Origin: Pseudomonadota bacterium
GTDB taxonomy: Bacteria; Pseudomonadota; Gammaproteobacteria; Burkholderiales; Burkholderiaceae_F
DNA length: 64,000 nt
Direction of reading: 5' to 3'
NCBI GenBank assembly: GCA_021842465.1
Contig: JAKBZN010000001.1
Span: 62,001-126,000, forward strand
Shown here piece after piece: positions 35,904 to 46,732 of this stretch. Numbering within the stretch: the first letter of the stretch is position 1; the number at the start of each line of letters is the position of its first letter. The position numbers and the translations under genes are program-made. Under the pieces are notes generated by a model. That model made no database searches. It saw only the letters and a list, made by a program, of their open reading frames with translations, and was not told the origin of the DNA.

Positions 35904-36102
35904 CTCCTCATCCGCAAAAAAACAGGCGGACGCCTCACTCCCGACGACCGGAAGCCGACGCCGGGTGCCGCAACCAATTTGGCAGGACACCGGCTCCGCC
36001 GCCGGATGGCGTACCTACTCCGACAACTATTTATTATATACCGAAGCGGCGCAACACGGCAGGCGTTTCCCGATCGCCCGGTCGGCCGCCATGCCTTCCG
36101 GG

Positions 36103-37590
36103 CTAACCGCCGAATCCGCCCCCCCGGGGCTTCGTGCGCCGGAAATTGCCGCGGCCTGCACCACCACCGCCCCCGCCCCCACCACCGCCGCGCGGGGCGC
36201 GAAGCGCGCCAGTCCCATGGCCGTTGGCGATGTAGCTGACGGTGCTGGTCAGCGGGTCCGGCTGACGCGAGCCCGTCGGACGCCCCCCGGCGGGCCGGCG
36301 CGACGGCCCTTTCATGCCGGGCAGCGCGCCTTGTGCGAAGTAATGCACGGTGGTCGCCATCGGATCCGGCTGGCGGCCGCCACCTGGACGGCCGGCGTTG
36401 CCCCGGGCGCCGCCGCTGTTCGGGCGATTGCCGCGCTTGGCGCCTCCTGGCTTGCCACGTCCGGTGGGCCCCGCCCCCGACCGCATTTCGTTGATTCCGA
36501 TGCCCAGATCGCTCAGCCAGGCCTCGACCCAGGCCGGCGACAGTTCCTGGTAGCGCCCCCGGGAGAGCGCACGCGGCAACTGGACCGCGCCGAACCGGGT
36601 CCGGATCAGCCGGCTGACCGTCAGGCCGACCGCCTCGAATACCCGGCGCACCTCGCGGTTGCGACCTTCCTGGATGACCACCCGGAACCAGTGGTTCGCA
36701 CCCTGTCCGCCGGCATCCTCCAGCCGGGAAAAGCGCGCCGGACCGTCGTCCAGTTCCACGCCTTCGAGCAGGCGCGCATGGATCTCCGGTGTGAGGTCGC
36801 CCAGGATGCGCACGGCATACTCCCGCTCGACTTCGAATCGCGGATGCATCAGGCGATTGGCCAGATCTCCCGAAGTCGTCAGCACCAGCAGGCCTTCCGT
36901 ATTGAAATCCAGCCGGCCGACGGCGATCCAGCGTCCGCCGGAAATCTTGGGCAATTTGTCGAAGACCGTTGCCCGCGACTGTGGATCATCCTGCGACACG
37001 ATCTCTCCGGCGGGCTTGTGGTACAGCAGCACGCGCGGCAAGCGCCCGGGCTGCTTTCGCATCAGCAACTTGCCATTGACCCGAACCTGATCGGTCGGCA
37101 ATACCCGCTGCCCGACGTGCGCCGGCTGGCCGTTGACCGACACCCGGCCGGCGACGATGAGTTCTTCCATGTCGCGCCGCGATCCGATTCCCGCATCCGC
37201 CAGAACCTTGTGCAGCTTGTCGGACTGGGCGTTCAGCGCCTGCTTGGCCGCCCGCTTCCCACGATCCAGGACGGCGTGGTCGAGCGCCTGCTCGGCCATC
37301 GCCAACCCGGAGAAATCCTCGCCTTCCTCGGCGGGGGCGACCGGCGGCGCGACGTCGTCCGCTCCTTCCGGCGCGGCGCCCTGCACCCCGCGCTCGCCGT
37401 GGCGCGCGCCCCGGCGGCGGCGGCCGAGCAGGCCGCGCCCTCGGCGCTCCCCGGATCCGGCAGATGGATCCGCCGCCGGCGGCGCTTCGCGGCCTTCCGC
37501 CGCATCGTGCAAAGGAATGGGGTCCGACAGCCGGTCGGAATCGGGGGCGCGCCCGTCGTCGGGCAGATCCACAGATGGACTTGAGTTCAT
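36103..37590 (-). CDS. rluB: 23S rRNA pseudouridine synthase (RsuA/RluB family) with long Gly/Arg-rich C-terminal tail
   Basis: [38 protein letters not shown]...[41 protein letters not shown]. Confidence 0.93.
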
Positions 37591-38249
37591 AGAGAAGAAT
37601 TCGTTTCGGTAAGAGCTTCGGTAGTCGGAATGGCGTCGATCAAATCGGCCTGCAAACCCGGGGGACCCGCCGGCGCGGGCGTCGCGGTGATCCCTGCTCC
37701 GGAAAGCGGAAGCTCCGGTTTCGCGTCGCCGGTTTCGGAGTCGACCCCGATCGGCGGCAGTTCCTGCAGGGAGCGCAGGCCAAAATCATCCAGAAACGCG
37801 GGCGTGGTTGCGAACAGCGCAGGGCGCCCCGGCGCCTCGCGATGGCCGATCGCTTCGATCCAGCCCCGCTCCTCCAGCGTCTTGATCACCGGAGAGGAAA
37901 CACTCACTCCGCGGATCTCCTCGATGTCGCCACGCGTCACGGGCTGGCGATACGCGACGATCGCCAGCGTTTCCAGGATTGCTCGCGAGTACTTCGGCGG
38001 TTTTTCCGGATGCAGCCGATCCAGGTACGGCGTCATCGCCGCCGTACTCTGGAAACGCCACCCGCTCGCCAACGGAACCAGTTCGATTCCTCGTCCCGCC
38101 CAATCGCGACGCAGGTCCTCCAGCAGAACCCGGACGGTTTCGTCATCGAGCTCCTCCGGAAACAGCCTGCGCAACTGAGTCACGGCAAGCGGCTGCTCCG
38201 CGGTGAGCAAGGCCGCTTCCAAGACGATCTTCGCCTCTTGCGTATTCAT
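37587..38249 (-). CDS. scpB: segregation and condensation protein B
   Basis: [25 protein letters not shown]...[34 protein letters not shown]-type winged-helix signature. Confidence 0.93.
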
Positions 38250-38490
38250 GATTCGGTGCAATGTTCAAGCCGACGCAAGCACGGCGAAAGCCGTGCGCGC
38301 GTGTGTCGTCGGACAGGTAGAACGGATGGAACAAGCTTTGCGCGGGCGCAGCGCGCCGAAAACAGCCGCGCCGATTTCTCCACCACGCCGTCGCCACGAA
38401 TGGCCGCTATCGAAAACCGCCGAACGGTACAACCACGGTACGCGGCGATTTCACAAAAATCCTTGCGGGCGAGTCTATCACCGAACCCGG

Positions 38491-38519
38491 TTGACAATGG
38501 ATACTGTATATCCGTACAG
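38491..38519 (+). promoter_or_regulatory. lexA promoter region with LexA box
   Basis: TTGACA at 38491-38496; LexA box ctgtatatccgtacag (CTG-N10-CAG) at 38504-38519. Confidence 0.88.
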
Positions 38520-38544
38520 TGTGAACAAACCCAGTATCCCGCGA

Positions 38545-38588
38545 CGCCTCGCCGCCCCCGCATGAACCTGCGCGGGGGCGGCGAGGCG
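38545..38588 (+). other. perfect 17-bp GC hairpin in lexA leader
   Basis: cgcctcgccgcccccgc-atgaacctgc-gcgggggcggcgaggcg. Confidence 0.85.
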
Positions 38589-38611
38589 CCGGACCAGCCC
38601 AGGAGCTTGCC

Positions 38612-39247
38612 ATGCACCCCGACCCGACCGGCATCTTGACCGCCCGGCAACGCGAGATTCTCGAATTCATTCGTACGACGCTCACGCAAAGCGGCGCCCC
38701 GCCGACGCGCGAAGAAATCGCCCGCGCTTTCGGGTTCCGTTCGCTCAACGCCGCGGAACAGCATCTGCAGGCGCTCCAGAAGAAAGGACTGATCGAACTG
38801 ATTTCGGGAACCTCGCGCGGCATCCGTCTGCACGAATCCATCCGCGCCGAACCGGCGCGCGAGTTTGGTCTGCCCCTGATCGGCAAGGTCGCCGCAGGCA
38901 GCCCCATCCTCGCCCAGGAAAACGTTCTCCGGCATCCGGCCGTGGATCCCGCCACGTTCACCCCCCGCGCCGACTATCTGCTGGAAGTCCGCGGCATGAG
39001 CATGCGCGACGCCGGCATCCTCGACGGCGACTGGCTGGCGGTCCACCGGCAGAACCAAGCCCGCAACGGCCAGATCGTCGTGGCCCGCCTGGGCGACGAA
39101 GTCACCGTCAAGCGACTGCAGATGCAGGGCCCCCGAGCCGAACTGATCGCCGAAAACCCCGACTACGCCCCCATCCTGGTCGATCTGCGGCGCACGCCCT
39201 TGGTCATCGAGGGTCTTGCGGTCGGCGTGATCCGCCCCGCGGTATGA
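38612..39247 (+). CDS. lexA: LexA repressor
   Basis: [55 protein letters not shown]...[18 protein letters not shown]...[19 protein letters not shown]. Confidence 0.97.
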
Positions 39248-39266
39248 ATCACCCCCTGCCGTCGCC

Positions 39267-40646
39267 ATGCCTTTCTGGTTTGCCTTCCTGCTGGACCCCT
39301 TGCCGCTGCCGTCGTCTCGGCAAGGCAGCGAAACCCAGGCCATCCCCCTATCGGCATGGGCGCAGCGGTTCAGCACGCAGGTCGTCCCCCTATCCGGCCC
39401 GGACCACACGGGATTCCTGATCGAAACCGGCGGCAGCGAACGCCTGTTTGGCGGCCGCGCGCCCCTGCACCGCAAGATCCTCGACGGTCTGCGCGAACAA
39501 GGATTCGCCGCGGACCGGATCGCCGCGGCCGGCGCTCCCACCCCCGCCGCCGCCCACGCGTTTGCCCGGGCGCGCGCGCTCGGGCTGATCGCCGCCCCGG
39601 CGGCGTCGCTGGCGGTTGAACGGCACGAACTCCACGCCGCCCTGGATCGCCTTCCCCTGCGTGCGCTCGCATGGGAGGCGGCACTGCTCGAACCGCTGAG
39701 CGATCTCGGCATCGAAACGGTCGGAGACCTTCTACGCTTGCCGCGCGATGCATTCGCGCGGCGGTTCGGCGCCCAATGGCTGGCGGTCCTGGACCGGATG
39801 GTCGGAACGGCCCCGGACCCGCAAGCCTGCCTTCCCGCTCCCGAACGCCTCTGCCTGCACGAAGAGCTTTCCACTGCGGCCATCGGCGTGGAATCGCTCC
39901 AGGGTCCGCTCATGCGGCTGCTGGGGGGCGTGGAAGCATTCCTGCGCGCACGGAACCTGGGCGCCACCGCCCTGCTGCTGCGCACACATCACCCCAAGCG
40001 CCGTGGGGCGACGCCGCCGCCCAGCGCCACCCCCCTGATGCTCGCGGCACCGGAACGCGATGCCGTCCGGCTGCAATCCCTGTTCGCCGAACGGCTGACA
40101 CGCGCGCGCCTGCCCGAAGCGGTCGTCGGCCTTGAACTCGAGGTTCTCCGAGTGCATGCCTTTGCGGCGACCAGCGGCGAGTTGCTGCCGCCGACTGCCC
40201 AGGGCCTGCCCGAAGAAGGCGGCGCGGCGCGCAAAAGCACCCGTCATCTGTGCGAGATGCTGCATGCGCGCCTGGGTTCTGCCGGGGTATTCCAGTTGCA
40301 GGCCTGCGACGACCATCGCCCGGAGCGGGCCTACTGCAGCGTCCCGATCTTTTCCTCTCCCGGGCCCATGGTCCCGCCACCGGCAGCGTCGCGCCCGTTA
40401 TGGATCCTGTCCCAACCCCTGCGCGTATCTGATATCCATCATCCCCAGCCCCGCTACGGCGGCCCCCTGACCCTGCTCGCCGGACCCGAGCGGATCGAAG
40501 CGGGATGGTGGGACTCGCTTCGCCCACGAGCGCATGCCGTGCATCGGGATTACTTCGTCGCCCGCAACACCCGAGGCCAGACGCTCTGGATCTACCGCGA
40601 ACTCGCGGCGCCGCGAACCTGGTTTTTGCATGGCTTCTTTTCCTGA
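39267..40646 (+). CDS. imuB: ImuB-like Y-family polymerase homologue (shortened N-terminus)
   Basis: LIETGGSERLFGGRAPLHRKILDGLREQGF...LSDLGIETVGDLLRLPRDAFARRFG...PERIEAGWWD...RDYFVARNTRGQTLWIYRE...WFLHGFFS. Confidence 0.9.
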   Translation: MPFWFAFLLDPLPLPSSRQGSETQAIPLSAWAQRFSTQVVPLSGPDHTGFLIETGGSERLFGGRAPLHRKILDGLREQGFAADRIAAAGAPTPAAAHAFARARALGLIAAPAASLAVERHELHAALDRLPLRALAWEAALLEPLSDLGIETVGDLLRLPRDAFARRFGAQWLAVLDRMVGTAPDPQACLPAPERLCLHEELSTAAIGVESLQGPLMRLLGGVEAFLRARNLGATALLLRTHHPKRRGATPPPSATPLMLAAPERDAVRLQSLFAERLTRARLPEAVVGLELEVLRVHAFAATSGELLPPTAQGLPEEGGAARKSTRHLCEMLHARLGSAGVFQLQACDDHRPERAYCSVPIFSSPGPMVPPPAASRPLWILSQPLRVSDIHHPQPRYGGPLTLLAGPERIEAGWWDSLRPRAHAVHRDYFVARNTRGQTLWIYRELAAPRTWFLHGFFS

Positions 40647-43600
40647 GTACGCGGAACTCCACTGCGTGTCCAACTTTTCGTTTCTGCGGGGCGCATCGCA
40701 TCCGGAGGAACTGGTCGAACGCGCGCTTACCCTCGGGTATGCCGGGCTCGCCCTGACCGACGAATGTTCCTTCGCCGGCGCCGCGCGCGCCCACATCGCC
40801 CTGCGCAACGCGCGCACGACGATCCCGGCCGCGAGCCACTTCCGCCTGCTCCACGGCACCGAAATCCGCATCGCGGACGGCCCGCTGCTGGTGCTGCTGG
40901 CACAGAATCGCACCGGGTACGGCAACCTCTCCGAACTCGTCACGCGCGCACGCCGCGCCGCCAGCAAGGGTCGATACCACATCGATCGCGCGGCATTCGA
41001 CACTAACGAACCCTTGCTGCGCGACATGCTGGCGCTGCTGATCGCGGAGCCCGCACACGGCGCACCGCGCCAAGGTGGCTGCGATGCCGCCGCGCTGGAG
41101 CGGGACGCGGCCTGGCTGCGCGAACGCTTCGAAGACCGCGCAGCAATCGCCTGCGAACTGTTGCGCGCACCCGACGACACGGCACGGCTCCGCACCCTGC
41201 GGTCGATCGCCCGGCACTACGGCCTGCCACTTGCCGCCGCCGGAGGCGTGCACATGCATGTGCGCAGCCGCAAGAAACTGCAGGATGCCGTCACCGCCAT
41301 CCGGCACGGCATTCCATTGTCACGATGCGGAACGCGGCTCTTCCCGAACGCCGAACGGCATTTGCGCTCGCGGGCCCGCCTGGCGCGAATCTATCCGCCC
41401 GAACTGCTCGCGCAGTCCGTGGCCATCGCGCATCGCTGTGCATTTTCTCTCGATGCGTTGCGCTACGAGTATCCGGACGAACTCGTTCCCGCCGGAGAAA
41501 CCCCCGCCACGCATCTTCGTCGGCTCACGATCGAGGGCGCGGCGGGCCGCTACCCGCGAGGGATTCCCCGAGCCGTGCAGGGCCAGATCGAGCACGAGCT
41601 CGCGCTCATCGGCGATTTGCAGTATGAGCCCTACTTCCTGACCGTACACGACATCGTCCGGTTCGCCCGCGGCCGCGGCATCCTGTGCCAAGGACGCGGC
41701 TCCGCCGCCAACTCCGCGGTGTGCTACTGCCTCGGGATCACCGAAGTGGATCCCGCCTGCTCGAACCTGCTGTTCGAGCGTTTTCTCAGCCGGGAGCGCA
41801 ACGAACCCCCCGACATCGACGTCGATTTCGAAAACCGCCGCCGGGAAGAGGTGATGCAATACGTCTTCACCAAATACGGGCGGGAACGCACCGCCCTCGC
41901 CGCCGCCGTCCACACCTACCGGGCACGCAGCGCCGTGCGCGACCTGGGCGCGGCACTGAGTCTGCCGGCCGAGCAGATCGATCGATTCGCAAAGTCGGCA
42001 TCGCTGCGATTGCGCGAACGCGGCCTTGCACCGGACGAAGCCACTGGACGCCCCCGGAGCGCCGACGAATCGCCGCGAGCGAACGCGGCAGCCGATTGCG
42101 CGCTTTCCAAAGACTTCTACCCTCCGGCATGGGAGCCGCTTGCCGAACTCCTCCCCCAGCTGATCGGCTTTCCCCGACATCTTTCCCAGCACACCGGCGG
42201 ATTCGTCATCGCACGCGACCGCCTGTCGCGCCTGGTCCCGATCGAAAACGCCGCCATGCCGGGACGCACCGTCATCCAATGGGACAAGGACGATCTCGAC
42301 GCCCTGGGCCTGCTCAAGGTGGATGTGCTCGCACTGGGCATGCTCTCGTGCCTGCGACGCGCATTCGATCTCGTCAATGCGTTCGAACGCCGCGCCCCAT
42401 CGCCTCCGATCCCGCCGCACGCGAGCAAAACGCTTTGTCGACCGGCCGCGCTGACGCTCGCGAACATTCCCCGCGAGGACCCCGCGGTCTACGAAATGCT
42501 GAGCCGGGGCGATTCCCTCGGTGTATTCCAGGTCGAATCGCGGGCACAGATGAGCATGCTGCCGCGGCTGCGCCCGCAATGTTTTTACGACCTGGTGATT
42601 CAAACCGCCATCGTGCGTCCGGGTCCGATCCAGGGCGGCATGGTGCATCCGTATCTGCGCCGCCGCCAGGGGCTGGAGGATGCGTCCTACCCGTCTCCCG
42701 CCGTCAAGTCCGTGCTCGAGCGCACGCTCGGCGTGCCGATCTTCCAGGAGCAGGTGATGCAACTGGCCATCGTCGCCGCAGGCTTCACTCCCGGGGAAGC
42801 CGATCAGTTGCGCCGCGCCATGGCGTCCTGGAAACGCAAGGGCGGCATCGGCCCGCTTCGCGAAAAACTGGTTTCCGGCATGCTCGCGCGCGGCTATGGC
42901 GACGAATATGCCGATCGGATCGTGCGCCAGATCGAAGGGTTCGGCGAGTACGGCTTTCCCGAGAGCCATGCCGCCAGCTTCGCATGGCTGGTCTATGTAT
43001 CAGCCTGGATCAAACGCCACCACCCCGCGGCATTCTGCGCCGCGCTGCTCGATTCCCAGCCGATGGGGTTCTATGCCCCCGCGCAAATCGTGCGCAGCGC
43101 CGTCGACCACGGCGTCCACGTGCTTCCTGTCTGCGTCGCCACCAGCGACTGGACCTGTACGTTGGAACCCCACGAAGGCGATGCCGGGACCCCTTGCGTG
43201 CGCCTGGGACTCTCGCGGATCCGCGGGCTTGCGCAGGAAACCGCGCAACGCATCGTGGCGGCGCGCATGCAGGCGCCGTTCCGCAACATGACCGAGTTGG
43301 CCCGGCGCGCACAGTTGTCCCGCGCCGATCTGGAGCGGCTGGCACATGCCGATGCGCTGCGCAGCCTCGCCGGCGACCGCCGCACGGCCCTCTGGGGCGC
43401 CCTGGGCGTCGACCCGCAAGCGCCCCGCCAGGCGCCGCTGGCCGCCGAACCTCCGGCACACGAAGCCGCTCCCGCGCTCGAGGCGTCGACGGAAGAGCAG
43501 GACATCCTCGCCGATTACCGGCGCACGGGGCTGACCCTTCGACGTCATCCGCTCGCCCTGCTGCGCCCGGCGCTGCAAACGATGCGGGTGTCGAGCGCCA

Positions 43601-43908
43601 GCGAAATCGCGCGCGCGCGCGACCGCCAACTGGTCCGTGCCAGCGGCATCGTCATCTGCCGCCAGCGCCCATCTACAGCCAAGGGCGTGACCTTCGTCAC
43701 GCTGGAAGACGAAACCGGGACGATCAACATCGTCGTACGGCGCGCCATCTCCGAACGATTCGAGCGCGAATTGCTGGAATCCACCTTGCTCACCGTGTAC
43801 GGCCAACGCGACTCCGGCGGTCCGGTTCCGCACATGATCGCTGCGCGCCTGGTCAACCACTCCCACCTGTTGAACGGACTGATCGGAAAAAGCCATGATT
43901 TCCACTGA
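40630..43908 (+). CDS. dnaE2: error-prone DNA polymerase III alpha homologue
   Basis: YAELHCVSNFSFLRGASHPEELVERA...CQGRGSAANSAVCYCLGITEVDP...EPPDIDVDFENRRREEVMQYVFTKYGR; overlaps imuB by 17 bp. Confidence 0.96.
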   Translation: MASFPEYAELHCVSNFSFLRGASHPEELVERALTLGYAGLALTDECSFAGAARAHIALRNARTTIPAASHFRLLHGTEIRIADGPLLVLLAQNRTGYGNLSELVTRARRAASKGRYHIDRAAFDTNEPLLRDMLALLIAEPAHGAPRQGGCDAAALERDAAWLRERFEDRAAIACELLRAPDDTARLRTLRSIARHYGLPLAAAGGVHMHVRSRKKLQDAVTAIRHGIPLSRCGTRLFPNAERHLRSRARLARIYPPELLAQSVAIAHRCAFSLDALRYEYPDELVPAGETPATHLRRLTIEGAAGRYPRGIPRAVQGQIEHELALIGDLQYEPYFLTVHDIVRFARGRGILCQGRGSAANSAVCYCLGITEVDPACSNLLFERFLSRERNEPPDIDVDFENRRREEVMQYVFTKYGRERTALAAAVHTYRARSAVRDLGAALSLPAEQIDRFAKSASLRLRERGLAPDEATGRPRSADESPRANAAADCALSKDFYPPAWEPLAELLPQLIGFPRHLSQHTGGFVIARDRLSRLVPIENAAMPGRTVIQWDKDDLDALGLLKVDVLALGMLSCLRRAFDLVNAFERRAPSPPIPPHASKTLCRPAALTLANIPREDPAVYEMLSRGDSLGVFQVESRAQMSMLPRLRPQCFYDLVIQTAIVRPGPIQGGMVHPYLRRRQGLEDASYPSPAVKSVLERTLGVPIFQEQVMQLAIVAAGFTPGEADQLRRAMASWKRKGGIGPLREKLVSGMLARGYGDEYADRIVRQIEGFGEYGFPESHAASFAWLVYVSAWIKRHHPAAFCAALLDSQPMGFYAPAQIVRSAVDHGVHVLPVCVATSDWTCTLEPHEGDAGTPCVRLGLSRIRGLAQETAQRIVAARMQAPFRNMTELARRAQLSRADLERLAHADALRSLAGDRRTALWGALGVDPQAPRQAPLAAEPPAHEAAPALEASTEEQDILADYRRTGLTLRRHPLALLRPALQTMRVSSASEIARARDRQLVRASGIVICRQRPSTAKGVTFVTLEDETGTINIVVRRAISERFERELLESTLLTVYGQRDSGGPVPHMIAARLVNHSHLLNGLIGKSHDFH

Positions 43909-44746
43909 ACCGCTTCCCCCCGGCGTCTGGCACGCCAATGCGCTCGCGCACGACCAGCAGGAACACTGTGCATCCAGCGGCTTCGTCGCACTCGACCGGG
44001 AACTGACCGGCGGCGGCTGGCCTCAGGGTCGACTCATCGAACTGCTGGTCGACCATCCCGGGATTGGAGAACTGAGCCTGTTGCAGCCCGCCCTGGCCGC
44101 CATCACGAAGCGCGGCACCTCGTGCGCATGGGTGCTCCCCTGCGAGCGGCTTTCGGCAGCGGAACCCGCGGCACTACCGTACGCCCCCGCGCTCGCCCAG
44201 GCCGGCCTCGACCCGGCCCATCACATTTTCATCCGCCCGGATTCGCCCCGGGAAAGTCACTGGGCACTGGAGCAGTGCCTGCGCAGCGGGCAACTCGGCG
44301 CCGTGCTGGGGTGGATTCCGGATACGCCGAGCCCGGACGCCGGATTCCATGCGCTCCGGCGATTGCACCTGCTCGCGCAGCGAAGCCGGACGCTGGTGTT
44401 CATCCTGCGGTCTCCGCGCAATGCGCGCGCGCCTTCGCCGGCAGCGTTGCGCATCCGGCTTCAGGACGACGCCGGCCGGCTGTCGGCCTGCATTTTCAAA
44501 CGCCGCGGCCAACCCCTGCTCGACCCGATCCTCCTCCCGCTACACCCCGCCGAATGGCGCGATGCGATGGCGGACGCCCCCTGCGAAACCCCGTCCGCGG
44601 AACCGGCGGGACTCAAAAATGGAACGTCCAGGTCTGCACGATCGGTGGTTCGACCCCCGGCATCACATTCCCGGAGCGGGAGCAGTACGTCGAGCCGCTA
44701 CGGGTTGATGTCGTACATAGGGCTCCTCCCGGAGCTTTGTGCGTGA
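43895..44746 (+). CDS. imuA: ImuA-like (RecA/SulA-like) protein
   Basis: VWHANALAHDQQEHCASSGFVALDRELTGGGWPQGRLIELLVDHPGIGELSLLQPAL...VLPCERLSAAEPAALPYAPALAQAGLDP; overlaps dnaE2 by 14 bp. Confidence 0.87.
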   Translation: MISTEPLPPGVWHANALAHDQQEHCASSGFVALDRELTGGGWPQGRLIELLVDHPGIGELSLLQPALAAITKRGTSCAWVLPCERLSAAEPAALPYAPALAQAGLDPAHHIFIRPDSPRESHWALEQCLRSGQLGAVLGWIPDTPSPDAGFHALRRLHLLAQRSRTLVFILRSPRNARAPSPAALRIRLQDDAGRLSACIFKRRGQPLLDPILLPLHPAEWRDAMADAPCETPSAEPAGLKNGTSRSARSVVRPPASHSRSGSSTSSRYGLMSYIGLLPELCA

Positions 44747-45137
44747 TCTGCTCCGGCCGGTCCGTCCCGAGATTGCGGGTGAACACCTCATGCGCCCCGG
44801 GGCCGTGCAATCGCTCACCGAAAATCACGATCCGTCCGGCATCGGGAATGGAATTCAGGATGTTTCCCCATTGCCTGCGGGTGATCCCGCCCACCGGAAA
44901 CGCCGGATCGATCACGACGGGCTGATCCGACAGCGGCTCACGACAGCGCGCGATCACAGCCGAATTGCACTCGCCGCGCGACACCACCGGCAACGCATTG
45001 CCATCCGCCGCTGCGGCCGCCGCTGCGGCCGCCAGCCCGACCGCCAGCGCGCCTTGCGGGAGCCACCGGCCCCACCCGATTACGCGCCCAAGGATTCCGC
45101 TGTTCCCCACGTTCCGCCCGCCCATGTTTCCTGTCAT
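44613..45137 (-). CDS. small secreted protein of unknown function
   Basis: Signal-peptide-like N-terminus (LAVGLAAAAAAAAADGNALP), four mature Cys; ATG overlaps histidine kinase stop (ATGA). Confidence 0.6.
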   Translation of the reverse strand: MTGNMGGRNVGNSGILGRVIGWGRWLPQGALAVGLAAAAAAAAADGNALPVVSRGECNSAVIARCREPLSDQPVVIDPAFPVGGITRRQWGNILNSIPDAGRIVIFGERLHGPGAHEVFTRNLGTDRPEQITHKAPGGALCTTSTRSGSTYCSRSGNVMPGVEPPIVQTWTFHF

Positions 45138-46732
45138 TGCGACTCCACGCTTGTCATCGCCCGCACGGCCTTCCCCTCCTGCACGATCGGCAGGACCACC
45201 GAAAATCGGGAACCGCGCCCCGTCTCGCTCTCCACCCGAATCTCGCCCCCGTGCATGTCGACGATCATCTTCGCCAGATACAGCCCGATCCCGGTTCCGA
45301 CGATTCCTTTGACCATCGCGCCGCGGAAATGGCGCTCGAACAAACGCTCCCGATCCTCGGAAGGGATCCCCATACCCTGATCCTCGACCGCCACCCGAAC
45401 CCGCGCGGGGATGCCATCCGGCCCACACTCCACGGCACCATGCACCCGCACCCGCGCACCGCCGGGAGAATACTTGATCGCATTGGACAGCAAGTTCCCG
45501 AACGCCTGATCCAGCAGCCTGGCATCCCCCTCGATCTGCGACGGCAGACCCGACAGATCCTCGTCGATCTGCGCCCCCGCGGCGATTTCCCGATAGACCT
45601 GGCACACCTCGCGCAGGATCGCCGCCAGATCGATCGGCGCCGGATGGAAATACAGGCTACCGTGCTCCTGGACCAGCCGCGACGAATTCAACAACCGGTC
45701 CATCACATTCGTGATCCGCTGCACCGCCGCACGGATCTTTCCCGCTCGCTCCACGATCTCGTCGCCCGCCGCCTCCTTCATCTTGAGCAGGCGTTGCGCC
45801 TGCCCGTCGATCCAGGTCAGCGGGGTGCGGAACTCGTGCGACGCGACCGCGATGAAATTGCGCTGCATCGCCGCCAGTTCCCGCTCGACCTCCAACTTCT
45901 CCGCGAGCATCGATGCCTGCTGTTCGAGACCGCGCTGGCTGGCCATGAGTTCGATCGCGTTGTTGCGAAACACCACGACCGCGCGCGCCATTTCGCCGAT
46001 CTCGTCGCCCCGGCCGGTTCCTTCGATCTCCCCACCCGTGCGATTCTGCGAAAGTTCGCGCATGCGGCGGGCGAGGCCGAGGATCGGCCCCGACACCGTG
46101 CGCGCGATGTGCCATATCGACAGGACCACCCACAAGCCCGCGACCGCGATGGCGACCCCGATCCAGACGAACGCCTGATGAAAGGTTTCGTCCGCACGAT
46201 CGCTGGCCTCGTTGGCGCTGCGGACCGTGCGGTCGGTGAGGAGATCGACCGCATCGCTGGCCGCGCGGTACGCCGCCATCGACTGCGACCGATACAGTGC
46301 CTCGGCCTCCCGCAGCCGCCGCCGCCGCGCCAATGCGAACTCCCGGTCCGCCACGCCCCGGTAGGTCCTCCAGTAGCCTTCGAAATCCCGCCACAACTCC
46401 GCCTCCGTGCCGCTGTGGGGAAGCGACTCATAATTGCGCCGCGAAACCGATATGATGCGATCCAGGTTGGCGATCGCGCGATCGGCAGCGGCCGCATCGG
46501 CGGGGGTTCGGGCAAGTAGCCGGTCGGCCTCGGCGCCGCGGAAATCGGACGTGTAGTTGGTGACGTCGCCCAGGAATCGCACGCTCTGCAGCCATCGGTC
46601 GCGGATTTGCGCCGACGCCGCGTCGACCGTCCGCAGGCTCGCCACGCTGAACACCCCCAGGGCCAGCGCCAGCAAGCCGAGCAGCGCCAGCGAAAGCGAG
46701 AGCCGCGTTCGGATGGAGTAGCGTTGCGTCAC
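45134..46732 (-). CDS. membrane sensor histidine kinase (HAMP, HisKA, HATPase)
   Basis: FIAVASHEFRTPLTWIDGQAQRLL (H-box), LLSNAIKYSPGGARV, VEDQGMGIPSEDRERLFERHFRG, GTGIGLYLAKMIVDMHGGEI. Confidence 0.94.
   Translation of the reverse strand: MTQRYSIRTRLSLSLALLGLLALALGVFSVASLRTVDAASAQIRDRWLQSVRFLGDVTNYTSDFRGAEADRLLARTPADAAAADRAIANLDRIISVSRRNYESLPHSGTEAELWRDFEGYWRTYRGVADREFALARRRRLREAEALYRSQSMAAYRAASDAVDLLTDRTVRSANEASDRADETFHQAFVWIGVAIAVAGLWVVLSIWHIARTVSGPILGLARRMRELSQNRTGGEIEGTGRGDEIGEMARAVVVFRNNAIELMASQRGLEQQASMLAEKLEVERELAAMQRNFIAVASHEFRTPLTWIDGQAQRLLKMKEAAGDEIVERAGKIRAAVQRITNVMDRLLNSSRLVQEHGSLYFHPAPIDLAAILREVCQVYREIAAGAQIDEDLSGLPSQIEGDARLLDQAFGNLLSNAIKYSPGGARVRVHGAVECGPDGIPARVRVAVEDQGMGIPSEDRERLFERHFRGAMVKGIVGTGIGLYLAKMIVDMHGGEIRVESETGRGSRFSVVLPIVQEGKAVRAMTSVESQ

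What the first reader, a model, noticed from the sequence alone, without database searches (positions are those of the whole stretch)
38545..38611. Perfect 17-bp GC hairpin in the 5' leader of the SOS mutasome operon
Between the LexA box (38504-38519) and the lexA ATG (38612) lies cgcctcgccgcccccgc-atgaacctgc-gcgggggcggcgaggcg: 17 perfect, nearly all G:C pairs with a 10-nt loop. It ends 23 nt before the start codon, just upstream of the SD caggagc, and has no U-tract. So it is unlikely to be an ordinary intrinsic terminator. It would sit in every transcript starting at the LexA-controlled promoter and could gate translation, RNA stability or RNAP passage for lexA-imuB-dnaE2-imuA. The loop carries an ATG that opens a 25-codon frame (38562-38639) overlapping the lexA start out of frame. 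I do not know of a described post-transcriptional hairpin at this operon.
Basis: partly seen in the sequence, partly recalled or inferred. Interest (0 to 1): 0.68.

Follow-up and report, generated by a model that had tools for sequence, protein, structure and literature searches.

The report
Perfect hairpin in one lexA leader
In front of a DNA-damage-response operon (lexA-imuB-dnaE2-imuA) of a betaproteobacterial genome there is a real, non-random RNA hairpin, but only three close relatives share it, in weaker and drifting form, while the adjacent promoter and LexA site are frozen, so it looks more like a tolerated recent inverted repeat than a proven regulatory switch.

Summary
The hairpin is real and exact: 17 perfect pairs at 38545-38561 / 38572-38588 with a 10-nt loop, the longest perfect stem in 391 kb of this genome. 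Markov text of the same composition gave at most 14 bp. It lies downstream of a consensus promoter that overlaps the LexA box, so it should be in the mRNA (inferred). It is single-copy, has no U-tract, and leaves the Shine-Dalgarno sequence free.

The regulatory reading is not supported by comparison. Only 4 of 67 family genomes have this leader; lexA leaders elsewhere are short (median 39 nt) and unstructured. Among those four, promoter and LexA box are invariant (59/59), but the hairpin evolves at about the 4-fold-site rate. Its mid-stem is broken in the three relatives, covariation does not exceed shuffles (85/500), and the loop ATG (uORF) occurs only here. With four sequences, weak selection on pairing cannot be excluded: 13 of 20 pairs never vary (P about 0.05), and this genome has fewer broken pairs than my rough neutral estimate.

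Best explanation: a clade-specific inverted repeat, probably made by DNA template switching when the leader lengthened, transcribed and largely tolerated. On the same branch lexA became joined to an imuB gene lacking about 60 N-terminal residues.

The parts
38491..38520 (+). Predicted sigma-70 promoter TTGACA-N18-TACAGT; the -10 overlaps the 3' half of the LexA box. Predicted TSS about 38527
   Evidence: Consensus scan 10/12, 1 found vs 0.2 expected; 38471-38529 invariant in 4 species. TSS itself is inferred.
38504..38519 (+). LexA box CTGTATATCCGTACAG
   Evidence: Sequence; the strict pattern occurs once in this genome and once in each of G001-G003, always at lexA
38545..38561 (+). Left arm of the hairpin CGCCTCGCCGCCCCCGC
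   Evidence: identical in G003, two C>T in G001/G002
38562..38571 (+). Loop ATGAACCTGC; its ATG is not in relatives
38572..38588 (+). Right arm of the hairpin GCGGGGGCGGCGAGGCG, perfectly complementary only in this genome
38542..38591 (+). Extended inverted repeat (20 pairs, one A.C mismatch)
38601..38605 (+). Shine-Dalgarno AGGAG of lexA, outside the stem, invariant in the four species
38612..39247 (+). lexA
   Evidence: TIGR00498 220 bits, Pfam LexA_DNA_bind and Peptidase_S24
39267..40646 (+). imuB, lacking about 60 N-terminal residues
   Evidence: 54% identical to the ImuB of G005, which hits Pfam IMS; this one has no IMS hit
40633..43908 (+). dnaE2, error-prone polymerase (start approximate)
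   Evidence: NF004225 1406 bits
43895..44746 (+). imuA
   Evidence: NF033429 179 bits, cut-off 150

Best explanation
It is a clade-specific inverted repeat in the 5' leader of the lexA-imuB-dnaE2-imuA operon. The leader became about 55-60 nt longer in the ancestor of four species, and the new segment carried a near-perfect palindrome, probably made in one step by DNA-replication template switching (inferred). It is transcribed from the LexA-controlled promoter and folds into a strong hairpin at about +18 of the mRNA (inferred). Because its base stays about 20 nt upstream of the start codon and the SD is free, initiation and transcription tolerate it, and its sequence drifts at about the 4-fold-site rate. 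Its perfection in this genome is retention or re-copying of one arm, not a conserved regulatory device.
For: The leader is found in 4 of 67 family genomes. Of 77 lexA leaders with a recognisable box, the median box-to-start distance is 39 nt, and all with a helix of 10 or more pairs belong to this clade. Promoter and box are 59/59 invariant (P 4e-11 at the 4-fold rate), whereas the hairpin has 36 of 50 invariant columns against 33.3 expected (P 0.25) and 7 changes unique to this genome against 6.6 expected. The aligned pairs broken are 1 of 20 here, 2 in G002, 3 in G001 and 5 in G003. Fold z-scores are -4.2 here and -2.2, -1.5, -1.4 in the relatives. Covariation is reached by 85 of 500 shuffles. 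As an internal contrast, a palindrome between gph and trpE is nearly unchanged between this genome and G002: all 24 stem bases are identical and one loop base differs. Template switching is a described way to make perfect stems in one mutation (PMC8794818).
Against: Only four sequences, so low power. 13 of 20 pairs never vary against 8.9 expected (P 0.051), and one pair (38550.38583) went C-G to T-A in G001/G002. This genome has 1 broken pair where the neutral branch length (0.133) predicts 4 to 5 by my rough estimate, which hints at selection or arm re-copying here. Template switching itself was not shown: the branching order of the four species is weakly resolved, so the ancestral state is unknown.
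Confidence: 0.58

Rival explanations
1. A functional 5'-leader hairpin that tunes LexA and mutasome output, for example by mRNA stability or by keeping the ribosome-binding region single-stranded, recruited when imuB-dnaE2-imuA came under the lexA promoter.
For: It lies in the predicted 5' UTR 10-12 nt from an invariant SD. Basal and apical helices are retained in all four species and 13 of 20 pairs never vary (P 0.051). Hairpin, operon joining and the short imuB all appear in the same four genomes and not in G005/G006.
Against: The mid-stem is broken in three of four species, stabilities differ by about 17 kcal/mol, covariation does not exceed shuffles, and the 4-fold-site rate holds. Hairpin and operon joining coincide on one branch only, so the association carries no statistical weight. 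With about 15-20 predicted nt of 5' tail it is not the classic 5'-terminal stabilising stem (general knowledge).
Confidence: 0.27
2. A U-less transcription terminator or attenuator inside the leader.
For: Strong U-less GC hairpins occur between genes in these genomes, e.g. between gph and trpE, so lack of a U-tract does not by itself exclude termination.
Against: No terminator-like site was found in the region. There is no upstream + strand gene to terminate, since scpB is divergent. No alternative antiterminator pairing was identified. Constitutive termination would silence lexA itself.
Confidence: 0.07
3. A REP/BIME or other mobile repeat inserted in the leader.
For: It is a palindrome in an intergenic region, and the leader was lengthened in one clade. 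REP-like stems of another type (TCCCTCTCTCCCGC...) do occur in these genomes.
Against: Whole-genome searches with the leader find no other two-armed copy in this genome or in six congeners; the second G003 match (L126) is coding-like sequence without the hairpin.
Confidence: 0.03

Closest known systems
Quasipalindromes / template-switch hairpins (perfect or near-perfect inverted repeats made and mended by DNA-replication template switching)
   Same: Long perfect stem with a small loop, imperfect versions in close relatives, differences concentrated in one arm and the loop.
   Different: No mutation event was observed; polarity of the changes is unresolved because the outgroup leader cannot be aligned here.
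Structured 5' UTRs of SOS genes in enterobacteria, such as tisB (general knowledge, not tested here)
   Same: Hairpin between a LexA-controlled promoter and a start codon.
   Different: In tisB the structure hides ribosome access and is conserved; here the SD is free, the stem drifts, and no antisense RNA or processing is known. No Rfam family matches.
Intrinsic terminator
   Same: GC-rich stem-loop.
   Different: No U-tract; in a leader, not at a gene end.
REP / BIME palindromes
   Same: Intergenic GC-rich palindrome.
   Different: Single copy.

Membership tests
Conserved cis-regulatory RNA (leader element) | Structure conserved across relatives by compensatory change | tested here: not met
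   1 pair with both sides changed; covariation score reached by 85 of 500 shuffles; mid-stem broken in 3 of 4. Low power with four sequences.
Conserved cis-regulatory RNA (leader element) | Lies in the transcript | tested here: inconclusive
   A consensus promoter upstream is invariant in 4 species; TSS not mapped.
Conserved cis-regulatory RNA (leader element) | Match to a described family | tested here: not met
   No Rfam match at E up to 1 in 36000-46000.
Intrinsic terminator | Stem followed by a run of T | tested here: not met
   Tail CCGGACCAGCCC; scan finds none on either strand.
REP / repeat element | Multiple genomic copies | tested here: not met
   No other two-armed copy in 7 genus genomes.
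Template-switch (quasipalindrome) hairpin | Arm of one lineage re-copied to be the complement of the other arm in a clustered change | tested here: inconclusive
   38578 and 38580 differ from all three relatives and both pair in this genome; clustered, but few and unpolarised.
Upstream ORF regulation | uORF conserved | tested here: not met
   Loop ATG replaced by CCG or CCA in the three relatives.

The most novel reading that the evidence does not exclude
When the mutasome genes came under the lexA promoter in this clade, a leader hairpin was added that tunes translation or stability of the joint lexA-imuB-dnaE2-imuA mRNA, a post-transcriptional layer on an SOS mutagenesis operon.
Probability: 0.13. 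Interest if true: 0.5.

Novelty: new member of a known kind. Interest (0 to 1): 0.2.

Why it matters
If it were regulatory, it would add an RNA-level control to the operon that sets damage-induced mutation rate. As the evidence stands, it is mainly a clear case of a striking perfect hairpin that comparison with close relatives does not support as a conserved device, and a caution against reading function from stem perfection alone.

Tried and rejected
uORF in the loop: rejected, loop ATG not conserved. Repeat element: no further copies. Rfam family: none. Intrinsic terminator: no T-run. General feature of lexA leaders: only this clade. Loop-SD pseudoknot: the loop CCTG could pair with CAGG of the SD (4 nt), read by eye, but the loops of G001-G003 lack CCTG, so not pursued. 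Polarising the arm changes: trees of lexA/imuB/dnaE2/nusA leave the order of the four species weakly supported (SH-aLRT/bootstrap 94/93 and 81/78 on all sites; informative sites split 47/41/33), so template switching on this branch could not be proven. Literature searches for a lexA-leader hairpin found nothing in the held library; the first attempt failed on syntax. A search on leader hairpins and mRNA stability gave nothing specific to lexA. A first version of the leader extraction ignored strand and was redone.

Full report
OBSERVATION. The element is exactly as described: arms 38545-38561 and 38572-38588, 17 Watson-Crick pairs, loop of 10 nt, extending to 38542-38591 with one A.C mismatch. 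RNA of 38528-38611 folds at -50.0 kcal/mol, z -4.2, 0 of 200 shuffles as stable. In 391 kb of this genome it is the longest perfect stem with a loop of 3-15 nt, followed by two of 16 bp. Six Markov texts of 640 kb gave at most 14 bp; 2 Mb of text with the GC-rich composition of the leader gave at most 14 bp. It is therefore not chance in the sense of random text, but long hairpins as such are not rare: 400 kb of the relative G002 contains a 19-bp and a 17-bp stem.

SETTING. lexA (TIGR00498), imuB, dnaE2 (NF004225) and imuA (NF033429) follow in order on the + strand; scpB is divergent. A consensus promoter TTGACA-N18-TACAGT at 38491-38520 overlaps the LexA box 38504-38519. The predicted start near 38527 puts the hairpin at about +18 of the mRNA; this is inferred. 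The SD AGGAG (38601-38605) is outside the stem, and the stem base is about 20 nt upstream of the start codon, so it need not block initiation. There is no T-run and no Rfam match.

DISTRIBUTION. The genus has seven genomes. The leader exists in this genome and in G001, G002 and G003 (LexA 96-99% identical), and not in G004-G006; a search of 67 family genomes finds only these four. Among 110 lexA loci examined, 77 had a recognisable box; their median box-to-start distance was 39 nt, and every leader with a helix of 10 or more pairs belongs to this clade (L033 is the same record as L005). There is no other two-armed copy in any genus genome, so it is not a repeat element.

EVOLUTION. In the four-species alignment (A1) the 59 bases 38471-38529, holding promoter and LexA box, are invariant (P 4e-11 at the 4-fold-site rate). 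The hairpin has 36 of 50 invariant columns against 33.3 expected (P 0.25), and 7 changes unique to this genome against 6.6 expected. In the aligned structure of 20 pairs, 1 is broken here, 2 in G002, 3 in G001 and 5 in G003; the breaks of the relatives lie in the middle of the stem. Fold z-scores are -4.2, -2.2, -1.5 and -1.4. There is one pair changed on both sides (38550.38583, C-G here, T-A in G001/G002), and the covariation score is reached by 85 of 500 shuffles. The loop ATG occurs only here. As a contrast, a palindrome between gph and trpE keeps all 24 stem bases between this genome and G002, with one loop base changed.

CAUTION. Four sequences give little power. 13 of 20 pairs never vary, against 8.9 expected (P 0.051), and this genome has fewer broken pairs than a neutral branch of 0.133 would predict by my rough estimate. 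Weak selection for a hairpin, or recent re-copying of one arm from the other, remain possible.

MECHANISM. The most economical account is an inverted repeat created in the ancestor of the four species when the leader lengthened, most simply by template switching, which can make a perfect stem in one event (PMC8794818), followed by drift. Shown: restriction to the clade, drift at about the 4-fold-site rate, free SD. Inferred: origin by template switching, transcription, near-neutrality of effect. The polarity of the arm differences is unresolved because the four species branch almost together.

CONTEXT WORTH KEEPING. In G005, imuB has its own LexA box and a full-length N-terminus. In the hairpin clade imuB follows lexA directly, has no box of its own, and lacks about 60 N-terminal residues including the part that Pfam recognises as IMS. 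The hairpin therefore appears in the same four genomes as the joining of lexA and the mutasome genes; as both map to one branch, no causal claim can be made.

Noticed in passing
window 39267-40646; L172, L155, L178 (G001-G003) vs L181, L182, L199: ImuB of this clade lacks about 60 N-terminal residues (the IMS/palm segment recognised by Pfam in G005 and G006) yet the rest is 54% identical and the operon is intact in four species: a naturally shortened ImuB.
   Followed up: partly
window 38504-38519; L181:7103-7120: The strict LexA box occurs once per genome in this clade (at lexA), while G005 has a second one directly before imuB: the mutasome genes apparently moved under lexA's promoter.
   Followed up: partly
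L133:2093-2119 and L159:1296-1322: Palindrome CGGGGGCCGGGCG-C/G-CGCCCGGCCCCCG between gph and trpE, strongly conserved between this genome and G002, with no T-run: candidate U-less terminator or trp leader element.
   Followed up: partly
L149:4328-4372 (G000 contig C36): Two parS-like sites TGTTTCACGTGAAACA as a 45-bp inverted pair, probably marking the origin region.
   Followed up: no
L145:7379-7410 (G000), L170:19471-19502 and L169:3987-4013 (G002): Similar REP-like palindromes of the type CCCTCTCCC...GGGAGAGGG.
   Followed up: no
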